A stretch of 36,189 nucleotides of DNA. Origin: Caryophanales bacterium. GTDB taxonomy: Bacteria; Bacillota_I; Bacilli_A; RF39; UBA660. The stretch is taken from the NCBI GenBank assembly GCA_016288635.1, contig JAEEKZ010000033.1, positions 1-36,189 on the forward strand, in the 5' to 3' direction. Shown piece by piece: positions 3,404 through 29,686 of this stretch (position 1 is its first letter; the number at the start of each line of letters is the position of its first letter). Below the pieces are notes generated by a model. That model saw only the letters and a list, made by a program, of their open reading frames with translations. It searched no databases and had not been told where the DNA came from. A program made the translations under genes and the position numbers.

Positions 3404-4492
3404 ATGAGCAATATTATATTAACGGGTGATAGACCTACAGGTAGATTACATTTAGGACACTATGTTGGGTCATTAAAAAATAGAGTTAAATTACAAAATG
3501 AGTCTAATTATGATGATATGTTTGTAATGATTGCTGATGCTCAAGCATTAACAGATAACTTTGATAATCCAAGTAAGGTTAGAGATAATGTTATAGAGGT
3601 AGCATTAGATTATTTATCTGTTGGAATAGATCCAAATAAAGTGTCACTATTTGTACAATCAGAAGTAAGTGAATTAACAGAATTAACATTCTATTATATG
3701 AATTTAGTTACTTTATCTCGTTTACAAAGAAATCCTACAGTTAAAAGTGAGTTAAGTTTAAGAGGGTTTGAAGGATCAATACCATCTGGTTTTTTAAATT
3801 ATCCTGTTAGTCAAACAGCTGATATAACTGCATTTAAAGCTAATATCATACCTGTTGGTGATGATCAATTGCCTATGATTGAACAAGCAAGAGAAATTGT
3901 TCATAGTTTTAATTCCATTTATGGAGATGTATTAGTAATGCCTAATGCTGTTTTACCAAAGTCTACATTAGAGTGTAGATTGCCGGGATTGGATGGTAAA
4001 GCAAAAATGAGCAAATCATTGGGCAATTGTATATTTTTAGCTGACTCTGAAGAAGAAGTTAGAAAAAAAGTGTTTAGTATGTACACTGATCCTAATCATA
4101 TAAGAATTGAGGATCCTGGTTCTGTCGAAGGTAATATGGTATTTACATACCTTGATGTTTTTTGTAAACCTGGTGATTTTGAGAAGTACTTACCTGAATA
4201 TAAATCACTAGATGAATTAAAAGCTCATTATAAAAAAGGCGGTCTTGGAGATGTTGTCATTAAGAAGTTCTTAAATAACATTCTACAAGAAGAATTAAGG
4301 CCTATCAGGGAAAAAAGAAAAGAATTAGAGAATAATATTGAATATGTATATGAATCTTTGAAAAAGGGTACAAAGCATGCTAGAGAAGTTGCTTCAAAGA
4401 CTTTGAAAGAAGTAAAGGATAGCATGAAAATAAACTATTTTGAAGATCCAAGTTATTTAGAGGAAATAAAGAATAAATATAAACAACAATAA
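3404..4492 (+). CDS. trpS: tryptophanyl-tRNA synthetase
   Basis: GDRPTGRLHLGHYVGSL and KMSKSLGN class I aaRS motifs. Confidence 0.97.
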   Translation: MSNIILTGDRPTGRLHLGHYVGSLKNRVKLQNESNYDDMFVMIADAQALTDNFDNPSKVRDNVIEVALDYLSVGIDPNKVSLFVQSEVSELTELTFYYMNLVTLSRLQRNPTVKSELSLRGFEGSIPSGFLNYPVSQTADITAFKANIIPVGDDQLPMIEQAREIVHSFNSIYGDVLVMPNAVLPKSTLECRLPGLDGKAKMSKSLGNCIFLADSEEEVRKKVFSMYTDPNHIRIEDPGSVEGNMVFTYLDVFCKPGDFEKYLPEYKSLDELKAHYKKGGLGDVVIKKFLNNILQEELRPIREKRKELENNIEYVYESLKKGTKHAREVASKTLKEVKDSMKINYFEDPSYLEEIKNKYKQQ

Positions 4493-22126: not shown

Positions 22127-22202
<76 letters not shown>

Positions 22203-22207
22203 ATAAA

Positions 22208-22284
22208 TGGCGGTTCCGATGGGGTTTGAACCCACGATCTTCTGCGTGACAGGCAGACGTCATAGACCACTAGACTACGGAACC
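22208..22284 (-). tRNA. tRNA-Asp (GTC), CCA encoded
   Basis: Loop CTGTCAC; acceptor ggttccg/cggaacc. Confidence 0.95.
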
Positions 22285-22286
22285 AT

Positions 22287-22364
<78 letters not shown>

Positions 22365-22382
22365 ATAAATAAATAATAACAC

Positions 22383-22475
22383 TGGCGGAGGAAAAGGGAT
22401 TCGAACCCCTGCGCCAATTGCTTGACCTCCCGGTTTTCAAGACCGGTCCCTTCAACCGAACTTGGGTATTCCTCC
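22383..22475 (-). tRNA. tRNA-Ser (TGA), CCA encoded
   Basis: Long variable arm; loop CTTGAAA. Confidence 0.94.
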
Positions 22476-22541: not shown

Positions 22542-22569
22542 TTGATATTTTCGCTTTTTTAAGTAAAAT
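22542..22569 (+). promoter_or_regulatory. candidate promoter of bacteriocin-like operon
   Basis: TTGATA-N16-TAAAAT about 70 bp upstream of 22642. Confidence 0.45.
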
Positions 22570-22641: not shown

Positions 22642-24669
22642 ATGAAGATTGTTAAACAAAATGATTTAAGAGATTGCGGGGTTGCTTCTTTGTTGTCAAT
22701 TATTAGACACTACGGGGGAAATGTTCCAATAGAAAGACTTAGAATAGACACACATACTGATAAAGATGGAACAACTGCATTTAATTTAATTGAAACTGCA
22801 AAGAAGTATGGCTTTGATGCTTGTGGAAAAAAGATAGATAATTTATCAAGCAATCTTGTATATCCCATTATTGCACATTTAAATACTAATGGATTACTTC
22901 ATTTTGTTGTTGTATATGAGGTTAAGAAAAATAAGGTTGTTGTTATGGATCCCGCAATAGGGAAAGTTATTTATTATATGGATGATTTCTTAAATAAATG
23001 GACCGGTGTTATTTTGGAATTCTATCCCAAAGATAAAATATTGTATTTAAAAAAAGATAATAAATTACTAGATTTAATTATGGTATTTGTTAAGGATAAT
23101 AAAAAACTATTGTTTATGTTATTTATGATAAATATATTATTTGTTTTATTTTCAATTATTAATTCTTTTTTCTTTAAAGTTGGAATTAATAATCTTGAAA
23201 ATAATCTTAAATTAATTGTTATTCTTTTTTTCATAATTCTTGTTTTTAAATGTATTTTACAATTTTTAAGAGCTTACTATGAAAATTATATTAATATGCA
23301 TTTAGAAACTAGTTTGTTAAAAGAATTTATTAATCATTTATTTCATCTTCCTTCAAAGGTAATCTTCAGTAGAACTGTTGGGGAAATAGTTACAAGAGTA
23401 TCTGAAGTAGGTAATGTTAAAAGTTTATTTACAGATTTATTTATTGCTTTTTTCCTTGATTTTATTCTAACGTTGGTTACTATTCCAATTCTATATAGTA
23501 TTAATAATAAGCTTTTTTTGATTCTTTGTTTAAGTTTATTAGTGTACTTGGTTATTGGTTTATTTTACAGTAAATATCTTTATAAAAAGGTGATGCAAAA
23601 TATCGATTATAAAGATAAATATAATTCTTATTTAATTGATAGTATTTCTTGTTTTCAAAGCATTAATAATTTGAATGTCACTAATAAAATTTTAAAAGAA
23701 AATGAGTATAGAATTTCTGAATTTATTAATGATGAATTTTCAATGAACGATTTTTGTATAAAGATAGAAAGCTTGAAAAATTTTGTGTCTGAATTATGTT
23801 ATTTATTTATTAATATATTTGGTTTGTTTTTAATTAAAAATGGGTCTTTAGATTTTGTTAATCTTGTTTTGTTTAATACTTTGATTTCTTTTTTCTTGGA
23901 TCCTATTAAGAACTTTATTGATGTACTTCCTAAGTTTAATTTTTTGAAGGCATCATTTGATAAAATTAATGATTTTATAGATGTTCCGGTGGAGGAAGAT
24001 TCTTCATCAAATATTAATCTATCTAATTACAACTTGTTTATTGATAATATTAGTTTTACATATAATGATTTTATAAATATTTTATCTAACTTTTCTTTAA
24101 AAGTTTCTTATGGAGAAAAAATATTGCTTAAGGGTAGAAGCGGATGTGGTAAAAGCTCCCTCTGTAAAATAATTGCTGGTTTAGAGTCTATAAAGAAAGG
24201 AGATTTGTTTATTGGTGATATCAACTATAAGGACTTAAAAAGAATTGATTTAGTTAATAATATTTTATATGTTGGCCAATATGAAAATTTGATGAGTGAT
24301 AGTATTAAAAATAATTTGAATTTTAATAGAGAAGTGGATAGTGAATTATTTTATAAAATAATGAAGATTTGTCATGTTGATGAAATAGTAAAGAATAAAC
24401 CGCTTAGATATGAGACTTTTATAAATATGGATTCAAATAATTTATCTGGCGGGGAACGTCAAAGAATTATTTTAGCAAGGTCTCTTCTTAATTCGTTTAA
24501 TATTTTAATTTTAGATGAATCGCTTAGCGAAGTAGATTATAAATTAGAAAGAAAAATTATTTGTAATATAAAAAGAGAATATAAGGATAAAACAATTATA
24601 TATGTTACACATAAGAAGCAAGATGATTTGTTTGATAAGGTAATAAATATGGAGAGATGTTGTGAATAA
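22642..24669 (+). CDS. C39 peptidase-containing ABC transporter (bacteriocin export/processing)
   Basis: KQNDLRDCGVASL (oxyanion Q, Cys), LLHFVVVYEV (His), VVMDPA (Asp), TM domain, Walker A GRSGCGKSS, LSGGERQR, ILILDES, VTHKK. Confidence 0.95.
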   Translation: MKIVKQNDLRDCGVASLLSIIRHYGGNVPIERLRIDTHTDKDGTTAFNLIETAKKYGFDACGKKIDNLSSNLVYPIIAHLNTNGLLHFVVVYEVKKNKVVVMDPAIGKVIYYMDDFLNKWTGVILEFYPKDKILYLKKDNKLLDLIMVFVKDNKKLLFMLFMINILFVLFSIINSFFFKVGINNLENNLKLIVILFFIILVFKCILQFLRAYYENYINMHLETSLLKEFINHLFHLPSKVIFSRTVGEIVTRVSEVGNVKSLFTDLFIAFFLDFILTLVTIPILYSINNKLFLILCLSLLVYLVIGLFYSKYLYKKVMQNIDYKDKYNSYLIDSISCFQSINNLNVTNKILKENEYRISEFINDEFSMNDFCIKIESLKNFVSELCYLFINIFGLFLIKNGSLDFVNLVLFNTLISFFLDPIKNFIDVLPKFNFLKASFDKINDFIDVPVEEDSSSNINLSNYNLFIDNISFTYNDFINILSNFSLKVSYGEKILLKGRSGCGKSSLCKIIAGLESIKKGDLFIGDINYKDLKRIDLVNNILYVGQYENLMSDSIKNNLNFNREVDSELFYKIMKICHVDEIVKNKPLRYETFINMDSNNLSGGERQRIILARSLLNSFNILILDESLSEVDYKLERKIICNIKREYKDKTIIYVTHKKQDDLFDKVINMERCCE

Positions 24670-25069
24670 ATATAATTATTATAATTTGATAAATATGATT
24701 CCAAAAATAGATTGGTTTGTGGTTATTATTTCTTTATTTATCATTTGTTTTATGCCCGTTCTTTTCTTGGGTAAAATATATGAATATAAAAATGTATATG
24801 CAATATATAAAGATGATTATTTATATGTTGATATGAATGTAAATGACTCTAATTTATTAATAAACGGAGATTATTTATTAATAAATGGTAAAAAAATAAA
24901 ATACTTGATTGAAGAAATAAGTGATATTAATTTTGGGTCAAATGGTAATTATCAAACATTTAAAATAAGTGTTAATAAAGTTATGAAAAATAATGAAATA
25001 TCATTAATAAAAATATTTGGTAATAAACAAAGAATAATAAAAATAATAATGAATTATTTGGTTTATTAA
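24662..25069 (+). CDS. small one-TM accessory protein; HlyD-like minimal membrane-fusion or immunity candidate
   Basis: Overlaps transporter stop; single N-terminal TM then beta-rich exported domain. Confidence 0.6.
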   Translation: MNKYNYYNLINMIPKIDWFVVIISLFIICFMPVLFLGKIYEYKNVYAIYKDDYLYVDMNVNDSNLLINGDYLLINGKKIKYLIEEISDINFGSNGNYQTFKISVNKVMKNNEISLIKIFGNKQRIIKIIMNYLVY

Positions 25070-25080
25070 GGAGGTTTGAA

Positions 25081-25227
25081 ATGGAAATAGAGTTAAACAA
25101 TAATGAATTATTTAAAGTATATGGAGGATTTACCAAAATTGGTGCTATATCAATTGTTTCTGCTTTGGTTGCATTTATAGCAGGCCTAGTTGACGGATAT
25201 ATTAATCCTCAAAAATGTAATAAGTAA
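25081..25227 (+). CDS. double-glycine leader bacteriocin-like peptide 1 (48 aa)
   Basis: aaggagg RBS; MEIELNNNELFKVYGG|FTKIGAISIVSALVAFIAGLVDGYINPQKCNK; adjacent to C39 transporter. Confidence 0.85.
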   Translation: MEIELNNNELFKVYGGFTKIGAISIVSALVAFIAGLVDGYINPQKCNK

Positions 25228-25242
25228 AGGAGTGAGAAGAAA

Positions 25243-25392
25243 ATGTCTAATTATGAATTGTTTTGTGTAAAAGGTGGTGGCCTTAGTATTTCTAGTTTAA
25301 ATGTTATTGCAAGAATAGTAACTACATTAGTTAAACTGGGCCAGACTATTGGTTCAAATATTAGAAGAATCATTAGTGGTTCTATCTGTTAA
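25243..25392 (+). CDS. double-glycine leader bacteriocin-like peptide 2 (49 aa)
   Basis: aaaggag RBS; MSNYELFCVKGG|GLSISSLNVIARIVTTLVKLGQTIGSNIRRIISGSIC. Confidence 0.85.
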   Translation: MSNYELFCVKGGGLSISSLNVIARIVTTLVKLGQTIGSNIRRIISGSIC

Positions 25393-25425
25393 AAAAAGTC
25401 CGAACTTTGTGTTCGGATTTTTTTG
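25392..25425 (+). terminator. intrinsic terminator closing the peptide operon
   Basis: aaaaaagtccgaac-tttgt-gttcggatttttttt-like. Confidence 0.85.
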
Positions 25426-28435: not shown

Positions 28436-29686
28436 ATGACTAAAAGAAAAATAAATAAGAAATTTTTTAGATTGGTTTGTATTATCTTTGCATGGGTTGT
28501 GCTAATAGACATTTGTCTTGTTACTTACCATTTTTTCTTTAAAGAAAAATTTAAGACATTTTATATAGAACTTGTAGGAGCACCAGAAATGACTATAGGA
28601 TATGGAGATACATATTCTGATCCTGGGTTTGTGGCATATGATGCAAAAGACGGAGATTTGACTGCCAATGTGGTTACAGATGGAAGTGTCGATACATTAA
28701 AACTTGGTCAATATACATTAGTTTACAAAGTCACTAATTCAAGAAATAAAGAAGATAGTGTTAGCAGAGTGGTAAACGTTGTTGATAATAAAATCCCTGA
28801 AATGACATTAAATGGGGAAGAGAAAATTTTTATATTTAATGGAAAGAAATATGAAGATGAGGGATGTATAGCACTTGACAATTATGATGGTGATTTGAGT
28901 GGTAGCATTGTTGTAAATAACGATATTGATTATGAAAAAGCAGGTATATATACAATTAAATACGAAGTAAAGGATTCTTCGGGAAACGAATCGTCTATTG
29001 AAAGAAAAATATATATTGATACAATGGACGATAGTTCAGTTGATAATTATGTAATCAGTTTAGAAAAATATATCAAAGCAAAAAACTATAAAGTGAGTTT
29101 AGGATACTATAATATTGAAAATGAATATACTTATAAATATAAAAATGAAACTGTTTATTATGGTGCTAGTTTAATTAAAACTTTAGACGCTTTATATATC
29201 TATGAAAATAATATGATTACAAATACCACAAGAAATTGGGTAAAAGATGCTATTTCGGTTAGTTCGAATTCTGCACATGCTAATTTGATTAAAACAATAG
29301 GATTTCAAAACTTAAAGAAGTATGGAAATAATCTAGGAACTAAATATACCCTTATCGGAGGAGACAATTATGGTAATACTACCGTTGATGATCAACTTGT
29401 CGTATTTAAAAAGTTATATAGTTTTTTAGAATCTAGTGAATATGGTGACGAGCTTAAAGGATATTTTATAAATGATTATAGTAATTATTTAATATATGAA
29501 GGACTTCCAAAAGTGGCTCATAAATATGGTTGGTTTGATGTTTATTATCATAACGTTGGTATAGTTTATGATGAACATCCATATATAATCGTTGTATTAT
29601 CAAATGGGAATTATTCTAGTAAGCCAGAAATATTTAGAGACTTATCTAAAAAAATATATGAATTACATAAATTGATGCATTATTAA
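28436..29686 (+). CDS. membrane-anchored protein: two Ig-like DUF5011 repeats plus class A beta-lactamase/transpeptidase-fold serine hydrolase
   Basis: N-terminal TM; YGDTYSDPGFVAYDAKDGDLT and YEDEGCIALDNYDGDLS; SxxK (SLIK), SxN (SSN), HKYG. Confidence 0.8.
   Translation: MTKRKINKKFFRLVCIIFAWVVLIDICLVTYHFFFKEKFKTFYIELVGAPEMTIGYGDTYSDPGFVAYDAKDGDLTANVVTDGSVDTLKLGQYTLVYKVTNSRNKEDSVSRVVNVVDNKIPEMTLNGEEKIFIFNGKKYEDEGCIALDNYDGDLSGSIVVNNDIDYEKAGIYTIKYEVKDSSGNESSIERKIYIDTMDDSSVDNYVISLEKYIKAKNYKVSLGYYNIENEYTYKYKNETVYYGASLIKTLDALYIYENNMITNTTRNWVKDAISVSSNSAHANLIKTIGFQNLKKYGNNLGTKYTLIGGDNYGNTTVDDQLVVFKKLYSFLESSEYGDELKGYFINDYSNYLIYEGLPKVAHKYGWFDVYYHNVGIVYDEHPYIIVVLSNGNYSSKPEIFRDLSKKIYELHKLMHY

What the first reader, a model, noticed from the sequence alone, without database searches (positions are those of the whole stretch)
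22642..25425. Compact candidate two-peptide bacteriocin operon between a tRNA cluster and ysxC-der
Seen: C39-peptidase ABC transporter with intact Cys/His/Asp motifs, an overlapping one-TM protein, two adjacent short peptides with strong RBSs and GG leaders, then a strong terminator. Established: C39 ABC transporters (PCAT/LcnC/ComA family) cleave after GG leaders and export class II bacteriocins or pheromones. Inference: a self-contained processing, export and peptide unit inserted next to a tRNA array in a housekeeping region of a lineage resembling host-associated Bacilli/Mollicutes. No lanthionine or radical-SAM modification gene lies in the interval, so the peptides are probably unmodified.
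Basis: partly seen in the sequence, partly recalled or inferred. Interest (0 to 1): 0.88.

Follow-up and report, generated by a model that had tools for sequence, protein, structure and literature searches.

The report
Family-wide two-peptide bacteriocin-like export operon
The window holds a small operon that makes, cuts and exports two short partner peptides resembling two-part bacterial toxins, and instead of being a local insertion it turns out to be a near-universal, single-copy, exclusive trait of a whole family of uncultured, small-genome bacteria related to gut genomes, which makes its real job a sharp open question.

Summary
22642-25425 encodes a C39-peptidase ABC exporter, an overlapping one-TM protein, two GG-leader peptides (A, B) and a terminator. 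The two-peptide idea is strongly supported: 84 loci carry A and B, in that order, behind the exporter; both cores have a conserved GxxxG motif and, in 81 of 83 untruncated pairs, one Cys near the C-terminus.

The "inserted cassette" idea is not supported. B is found in 57/58 genomes of the same family (51/54 in a second sample) and, over its full length, in none of 341 class genomes outside it; A is in 19/19 family members and 0/373 others. Divergence tracks the housekeeping protein Der; the usual neighbour is rpsU-yqeY, not tRNAs. The one-TM protein is probably an exporter part: mycoplasmas have the same ABC/one-TM pair without A or B. A minority of loci add a small membrane ORF overlapping B that copies B's LGxxxGxxxR motif: a candidate immunity peptide, absent in the window.

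Best reading: a class IIb-like two-peptide system, probably membrane-permeabilising, with a predicted inter-peptide disulfide. It is a new variant of a known kind, notable for being a fixed lineage trait. Killing activity, disulfide and targets are untested.

The parts
22642..24669 (+). C39-peptidase / ABC exporter (675 aa): N-terminal Cys protease 22645-23034, TM domain, NBD
   Evidence: only C39 gene found in the genome assembly
24662..25069 (+). One-TM accessory protein (135 aa, GTG start, overlaps ABC by 8 nt): TM helix plus compact beta-rich extracytoplasmic domain; relative of the MAG1140 family of mycoplasmas
   Evidence: AF2 mean pLDDT 91.3; NCBIfam MAG1140 in 14/23 homologs; same ABC/one-TM pair in mycoplasmas
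25068..25074 (+). RBS of peptide A (AAGGAGG)
   Evidence: sequence
25081..25227 (+). Peptide A precursor (48 aa): leader MEIELNNNELFKVYGG, predicted core FTKIGAISIVSALVAFIAGLVDGYINPQKCNK; GxxxG and C-terminal Cys
   Evidence: TIGR03949 22.4 bits against cut-off 21.5
25226..25232 (+). RBS of peptide B (AAAGGAG)
   Evidence: sequence
25243..25392 (+). Peptide B precursor (49 aa): leader MSNYELFCVKGG, predicted core GLSISSLNVIARIVTTLVKLGQTIGSNIRRIISGSIC; GxxxG and C-terminal Cys
25399..25425 (+). Intrinsic terminator (CCGAAC-TTTGT-GTTCGG + T tract; palindromic, may work in both directions)
22542..22569 (+). Weak promoter candidate TTGATA-16-TAAAAT upstream of the ABC gene
   Evidence: number of such sites no higher than in shuffles, so only a suggestion

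Best explanation
The operon makes two precursor peptides, A and B. The C39 domain of the ABC exporter cuts each after its double glycine and the transporter exports the cores, probably helped by the overlapping one-TM protein as a small extracytoplasmic partner. A (hydrophobic helix, GxxxG, then a [R/N]PxxC tail) and B (amphipathic cationic helix, GxxxG, C-terminal Cys) pair through their GxxxG faces as class IIb two-peptide bacteriocins do, and I propose that the C-terminal cysteines lock the pair with an inter-peptide disulfide. The likely effect is permeabilising the membrane of other bacteria, presumably close competitors. Shown by comparison: gene set, order, conservation, distribution, motifs, selection. 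Inferred: cleavage, export, pairing, disulfide, target and killing. The operon is an inherited core trait of its family, not a recent insertion.
For: Exporter closest to PCAT1/ComA with invariant catalytic residues. A and B occur together in 84 loci in a fixed order. GxxxG in 75/79 A and 78/79 B cores; the B without it is truncated, and its full copy on another contig has it. TIGR03949 class IIb family matches 24/28 A and 6/30 B; lactococcin G-beta model 12/28 A, G-alpha model 5/30 B. Literature: class IIb peptides carry a GxxxG or GxxxG-like motif and permeabilise membranes (PMC8538875). Cys near the C-terminus of both peptides in 81/83 untruncated pairs; the two exceptions, both in one genus, lost the Cys-bearing tail from both partners together. 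Purifying selection. B in 57/58 and 51/54 family genomes; A in 19/19.
Against: Near-universal, single-copy presence is atypical of bacteriocins, which are usually patchy (own knowledge). No immunity gene is recognisable in the window, and the candidate immunity ORF is found in at most about a third of loci. Most class IIb peptides have no cysteine (PMC10100652), and a disulfide would have to form in what is probably an anaerobic habitat. Bacteriocin HMM support for the window's own B is nil. Nothing has been assayed.
Confidence: 0.66

Rival explanations
1. A and B are a conserved non-killing pair: a lineage-specific signal or cell-envelope factor exported by a bacteriocin-type machine and kept because every member needs it.
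For: Present in about 98% and 94% of family genomes in two samples and, over its full length, in no genome outside the family, in ~1 Mb genomes where genes are lost; single copy; divergence follows Der (Mantel r 0.55 ABC, 0.42 A, 0.42 B; no permutation of 2000 reached it); no obligatory immunity gene; no expanded arsenal in the genome.
Against: No receptor or histidine kinase is part of the conserved cassette; sequences of A and B look like membrane-active class IIb peptides; some loci carry a B-mimicking small membrane ORF that looks like immunity; one genome has a duplicated, diverged pair, as weapons often do.
Confidence: 0.24
2. Recently acquired mobile bacteriocin cassette inserted beside the tRNA cluster.
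For: tRNA genes lie next to it and relatives have it at other places.
Against: Family-wide single-copy presence, restriction to the family, correlation of divergence with Der, a usual alternative place at rpsU-yqeY, no integrase seen in the interval.
Confidence: 0.04
3. A and B act separately (two one-peptide bacteriocins or pheromones sharing an exporter) and do not pair.
For: Each has its own RBS; pairing is not demonstrated; the leaders are alike so the exporter could take unrelated substrates.
Against: Invariant co-occurrence and order, GxxxG in both, joint loss of both C-terminal Cys tails, correlated divergence of A and B (r 0.49; a shared tree explains part of this).
Confidence: 0.06

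Closest known systems
Class IIb two-peptide bacteriocins (lactococcin G / enterocin 1071, lactobin A / cerein 7B family TIGR03949)
   Same: Two adjacent GG-leader peptides of similar size, GxxxG in both, C39 ABC exporter, one hydrophobic and one amphipathic cationic peptide; A matches TIGR03949 and the lactococcin G-beta model.
   Different: One conserved Cys at the C-terminus of each peptide, [R/N]PxxC tail in A, no conserved immunity gene, near-universal in one bacterial family; B matches these models weakly or not at all.
Gallocin A (Streptococcus gallolyticus) and its immunity peptide GIP
   Same: Two-peptide system in which disulfides matter, with a small immunity peptide that resembles the toxin peptides (PMC10100652); our ORF 'C' likewise resembles B.
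   Different: Gallocin peptides each have two Cys and an intramolecular bond; here mostly one Cys per peptide, so only an intermolecular bond is possible; the window has no GIP-like ORF.
PCAT1 / ComA / LcnC-type C39 exporters (TIGR01193)
   Same: Same domain order, catalytic residues and substrate leader type; E 1e-86 to PCAT1.
   Different: 354 bits, below the TIGR01193 cut-off of 523.85; has an overlapping small one-TM partner rather than a full LcnD-type accessory protein.
Mbov_0121 family exporter and MAG1140 family protein of mycoplasmas (NF045998 / NF045999)
   Same: ABC gene overlapped by a ~130-150 aa one-TM ORF in the same order; homologs of the accessory match MAG1140 (best E 2e-5, 14/23).
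   Different: Mycoplasma loci show no A or B peptides beside the pair; the window ABC is at 320 bits, under the family cut-off of 500.

Membership tests
Class IIb two-peptide bacteriocin | Two adjacent precursors with double-glycine leaders | tested here: met
   84 loci with A then B; GG invariant in the aligned sets
Class IIb two-peptide bacteriocin | GxxxG (or GxxxG-like) motif in both helices | tested here: met
   75/79 A, 78/79 B; feature stated in PMC8538875
Class IIb two-peptide bacteriocin | Dedicated C39 exporter | tested here: met
Class IIb two-peptide bacteriocin | Dedicated membrane-associated immunity protein | tested here: inconclusive
   None recognisable in the window; candidate ORF C among 15 ORFs found by a strict motif-free test, 28 by HMM
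Class IIb two-peptide bacteriocin | Antibacterial activity requiring both peptides about 1:1 | not testable with these tools
   needs synthetic peptides
Lactobin A / cerein 7B family (TIGR03949) | HMM score at or over the curated cut-off | tested here: met
   Window A 22.4 bits against 21.5; B not listed for the window
TIGR01193 bacteriocin ABC subfamily | Score over cut-off 523.85 | tested here: not met
   354 bits; same architecture, so it works like one but is not filed as a member
Mbov_0121 family (NF045998) | Score over cut-off 500 | tested here: not met
   320 bits
MAG1140 family (NF045999) | Score over cut-off 35 | tested here: not met
   11.9 bits for the window protein; 14/23 homologs match at E up to 1, best 2.3e-5: distant relative only
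Gallocin-type class IIb | Two Cys per peptide forming an intramolecular bond | tested here: not met
   One Cys in 70/79 A and 72/79 B cores, window included
HlyD/MacA-type adaptor (accessory protein) | Significant fold match to adaptor proteins | tested here: not met
   Foldseek PDB: no match at E <= 0.001; MacA E 0.11-0.32

The most novel reading that the evidence does not exclude
A disulfide-locked A/B heterodimer that is a universal, exclusive core factor of one bacterial family: a bacteriocin-type system domesticated into a conserved lineage function (for example a signal, an envelope component, or obligatory lysis of neighbours for nutrients by auxotrophic cells) rather than a patchy weapon.
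Probability: 0.3. Interest if true: 0.82.

Novelty: new variant of a known kind. Interest (0 to 1): 0.62.

Why it matters
Bacteriocins are normally accessory and patchy. Here a two-peptide system is as widespread as a housekeeping gene across a whole family of uncultured bacteria with ~1 Mb genomes, yet was seen nowhere else in the class or phylum samples. It is a candidate signature trait of that group, it offers a ready set of natural variants (84 pairs) for testing how two-peptide bacteriocins pair, and the conserved Cys pair makes a precise, checkable structural prediction. The exporter/one-TM pair shared with mycoplasmas suggests an older export module whose mycoplasma cargo is unknown.

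Tried and rejected
Mobile insertion at the tRNA array: rejected on distribution, synteny and divergence. Accessory ORF as the immunity protein: disfavoured because mycoplasmas keep it with the ABC but lack A and B, though some family loci lack it. Accessory as a truncated HlyD/MacA adaptor: plausible by topology, but no significant fold match. MAG1140 family search in the mycoplasma-like family f4: no match over the cut-off; the right clade was f15. Peptides against the PDB: only the leader of the PCAT1 substrate CtA, weakly. A published description: text searches for RF39 + bacteriocin gave nothing on this system among the 15 papers listed; a class II bacteriocin atlas of gut genomes exists (PMC12648078) and may list the precursors; its data were not available. 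The first count of 48 loci with both peptides was corrected to 47: one hit (L050) was a cross-match of A to the B model.

Full report
OBSERVATION. On the plus strand are a 675-aa C39-peptidase ABC exporter (22642-24669), a 135-aa one-TM ORF overlapping it by 8 nt (24662-25069, GTG), peptide A (25081-25227, 48 aa) and peptide B (25243-25392, 49 aa), each with a strong RBS and a GG leader, and a palindromic terminator at 25399-25425. tRNA-Phe, Asp, Met and Ser are at 22127-22475 on the minus strand; ysxC and der follow. C39, ABC membrane and ABC ATPase domains are all present; the nearest solved structure is PCAT1 (E 1e-86), then ComA. Cys12, His87 and Asp103 are invariant in 18 homologs. It is the only C39 gene found in the 1.14-Mb assembly, which is about 90% complete.

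THE SAME CASSETTE IN RELATIVES. At E <= 1e-60 the ABC occurs once per genome in 49 of 58 genomes of the same family (window included) and in one genome of another family. I fetched these loci and looked for small ORFs. Of the 50 loci, 47 encode both A and B downstream; two others are cut by contig ends (L066, L070); in the third (L050, genome G015) A is shortened and B lies on another contig. As a hold-out test, models built on these loci were run on 38 further family loci chosen by B alone: A was found directly upstream of B in 37, the exception being cut by a contig end, and the ABC in front of it in nearly all. That makes 84 A-B pairs. In the 79 pairs with clear starts the order is ABC, A, B in 78; the exception is a contig that begins at A. 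The A-to-B distance is mostly between -15 and +22 nt.

DISTRIBUTION. The B model matches 57 of 58 family genomes; the miss is 79% complete. In an even sample of 395 class genomes it matches 51 of 54 family members, and outside the family only fragments confined to the leader half of the model. The A model matches 19 of 19 family members and none of 373 other genomes in a phylum sample at E <= 1e-5. The system is therefore close to universal in, and restricted to, one family in these samples. Named members are uncultured Bacilli MAGs, several with rumen or gut sample names.

INHERITANCE. Over 47 family genomes, ABC distances correlate with those of the housekeeping GTPase Der (Mantel r 0.55), and over 44 genomes A and B distances do too (0.42 each); A with B 0.49. 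No permutation of 2000 reached these values. This fits vertical descent but does not exclude some exchange. Just under half the neighbourhoods have rpsU (39) and yqeY (38) nearby, nearly always downstream; spoIIIAH, gerE-type and Germane-domain genes, or ylbF-like/rsmD genes, are common upstream. The window's place, between a tRNA cluster and ysxC-der, is the unusual one. No tRNA was found within the short der regions of 29 relatives.

THE PEPTIDES. Both leaders fit the (L/I)xxxEL-x2-(I/V)-x-GG pattern. Invariant in the aligned sets: A, GG, the second G of GxxxG, P and C; B, GG, both G of GxxxG and C. GxxxG is in 75/79 A and 78/79 B cores, the one exception in B being truncated. Cores average 32 and 39 residues, net charge about +1 and +3. 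A is the more hydrophobic, B the more amphipathic. In 81 of 83 untruncated pairs both peptides have a Cys near the C-terminus. The two exceptions, in one genus (L041, L219), lack the Cys-bearing tail in both partners (A keeps a Cys only inside its GxxxG); L041 also carries a second A/B pair in which both have the terminal Cys, and a third member of that genus (L204) has both. This joint loss, in a single clade and so one or two events, is the main sequence hint for a disulfide between A and B. Within-genus dN/dS of 0.04-0.61 indicates that both ORFs are translated and constrained.

THE ONE-TM PROTEIN. AlphaFold2 gives a confident model (pLDDT 91.3): one TM helix, a compact beta-rich domain and a C-terminal helix. 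No solved structure matches significantly; MacA is among weak hits. Fourteen of 23 homologs match the mycoplasma MAG1140 family at E <= 1, best 2.3e-5. In mycoplasma-like genomes (TGA read as Trp) the Mbov_0121-family ABC is overlapped by a one-TM ORF of similar size, recognised by my accessory model in several loci, beside ybeY and cdd or era, with no A or B. The protein therefore most likely belongs to the exporter, not to immunity. It was found in 58 family loci and is missing in about two dozen, so it is not indispensable everywhere.

CANDIDATE IMMUNITY. A search that ignored sequence motifs for 36-75-aa ORFs right after B found 15; 11 have LGxxxGxxxR-like motifs against 0.1 expected from shuffles, and most begin 12-15 nt inside B. 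A profile finds such an ORF in 28 loci. Mimicry of the toxin by the immunity peptide has been proposed for gallocin A (PMC10100652). The window has no such ORF.

MECHANISM AND NOVELTY. Most likely a C39-processed, exported, class IIb-like pair acting on membranes, with a predicted inter-peptide disulfide. What is new is its status as a fixed, exclusive trait of a family, the Cys pair, the exporter partner shared with mycoplasmas, and the immunity-like ORF in only part of the family. Because near-universality is odd for a weapon, a non-killing function remains a serious rival (0.24). I file it as a new variant of a known kind. Peptide A by itself passes an existing class IIb model, so parts of this are probably already annotated automatically; I found no description of the family-wide pair in the papers searched.

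Noticed in passing
L320-L331 (mycoplasma-like genomes of family f15), about 3449-3913 in each locus: A C39 ABC gene overlapped by a ~130-150 aa one-TM ORF, next to ybeY and cdd/era, with no GG-leader peptide nearby: an export pair of unknown cargo shared with the window's family.
   Followed up: partly
L197:4039-4431 (minus), genome G060; similar 139-aa frames in G072, G151, G228: In reduced genomes of family f4 a lone ~130-aa protein with a GG leader (MQKLKDNELKDIKGG) lies far from the genome's single C39 gene: possible unrecognised exporter substrate.
   Followed up: partly
L041 (genome G045), 407-980 nt after the end of the ABC gene: Duplicated A/B pair: one pair keeps the C-terminal Cys in both peptides, the other has lost it in both.
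   Followed up: partly
L067 and L202, start of peptide A: Peptide A has a good RBS but no ATG/GTG/TTG at the expected place; the start may be an ATT- or ATA-type codon.
   Followed up: no
L058 (genome G016), between A and B: A methyltransferase-like gene of about 700 nt sits between A and B, the only such interruption seen.
   Followed up: no
L043, L045, L063, L076, L204, L208 and others: The cassette often lies beside spoIIIAH, gerE-type and Germane-domain genes and upstream of rpsU-yqeY-(yqfC/yabP-like)-yqfD, so it sits among sporulation genes in many relatives; regulation not examined.
   Followed up: partly
window 28436-29686: Predicted surface protein with two repeated ~75-aa domains followed by what looks like a serine-hydrolase (beta-lactamase-like) domain; not analysed.
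   Followed up: no
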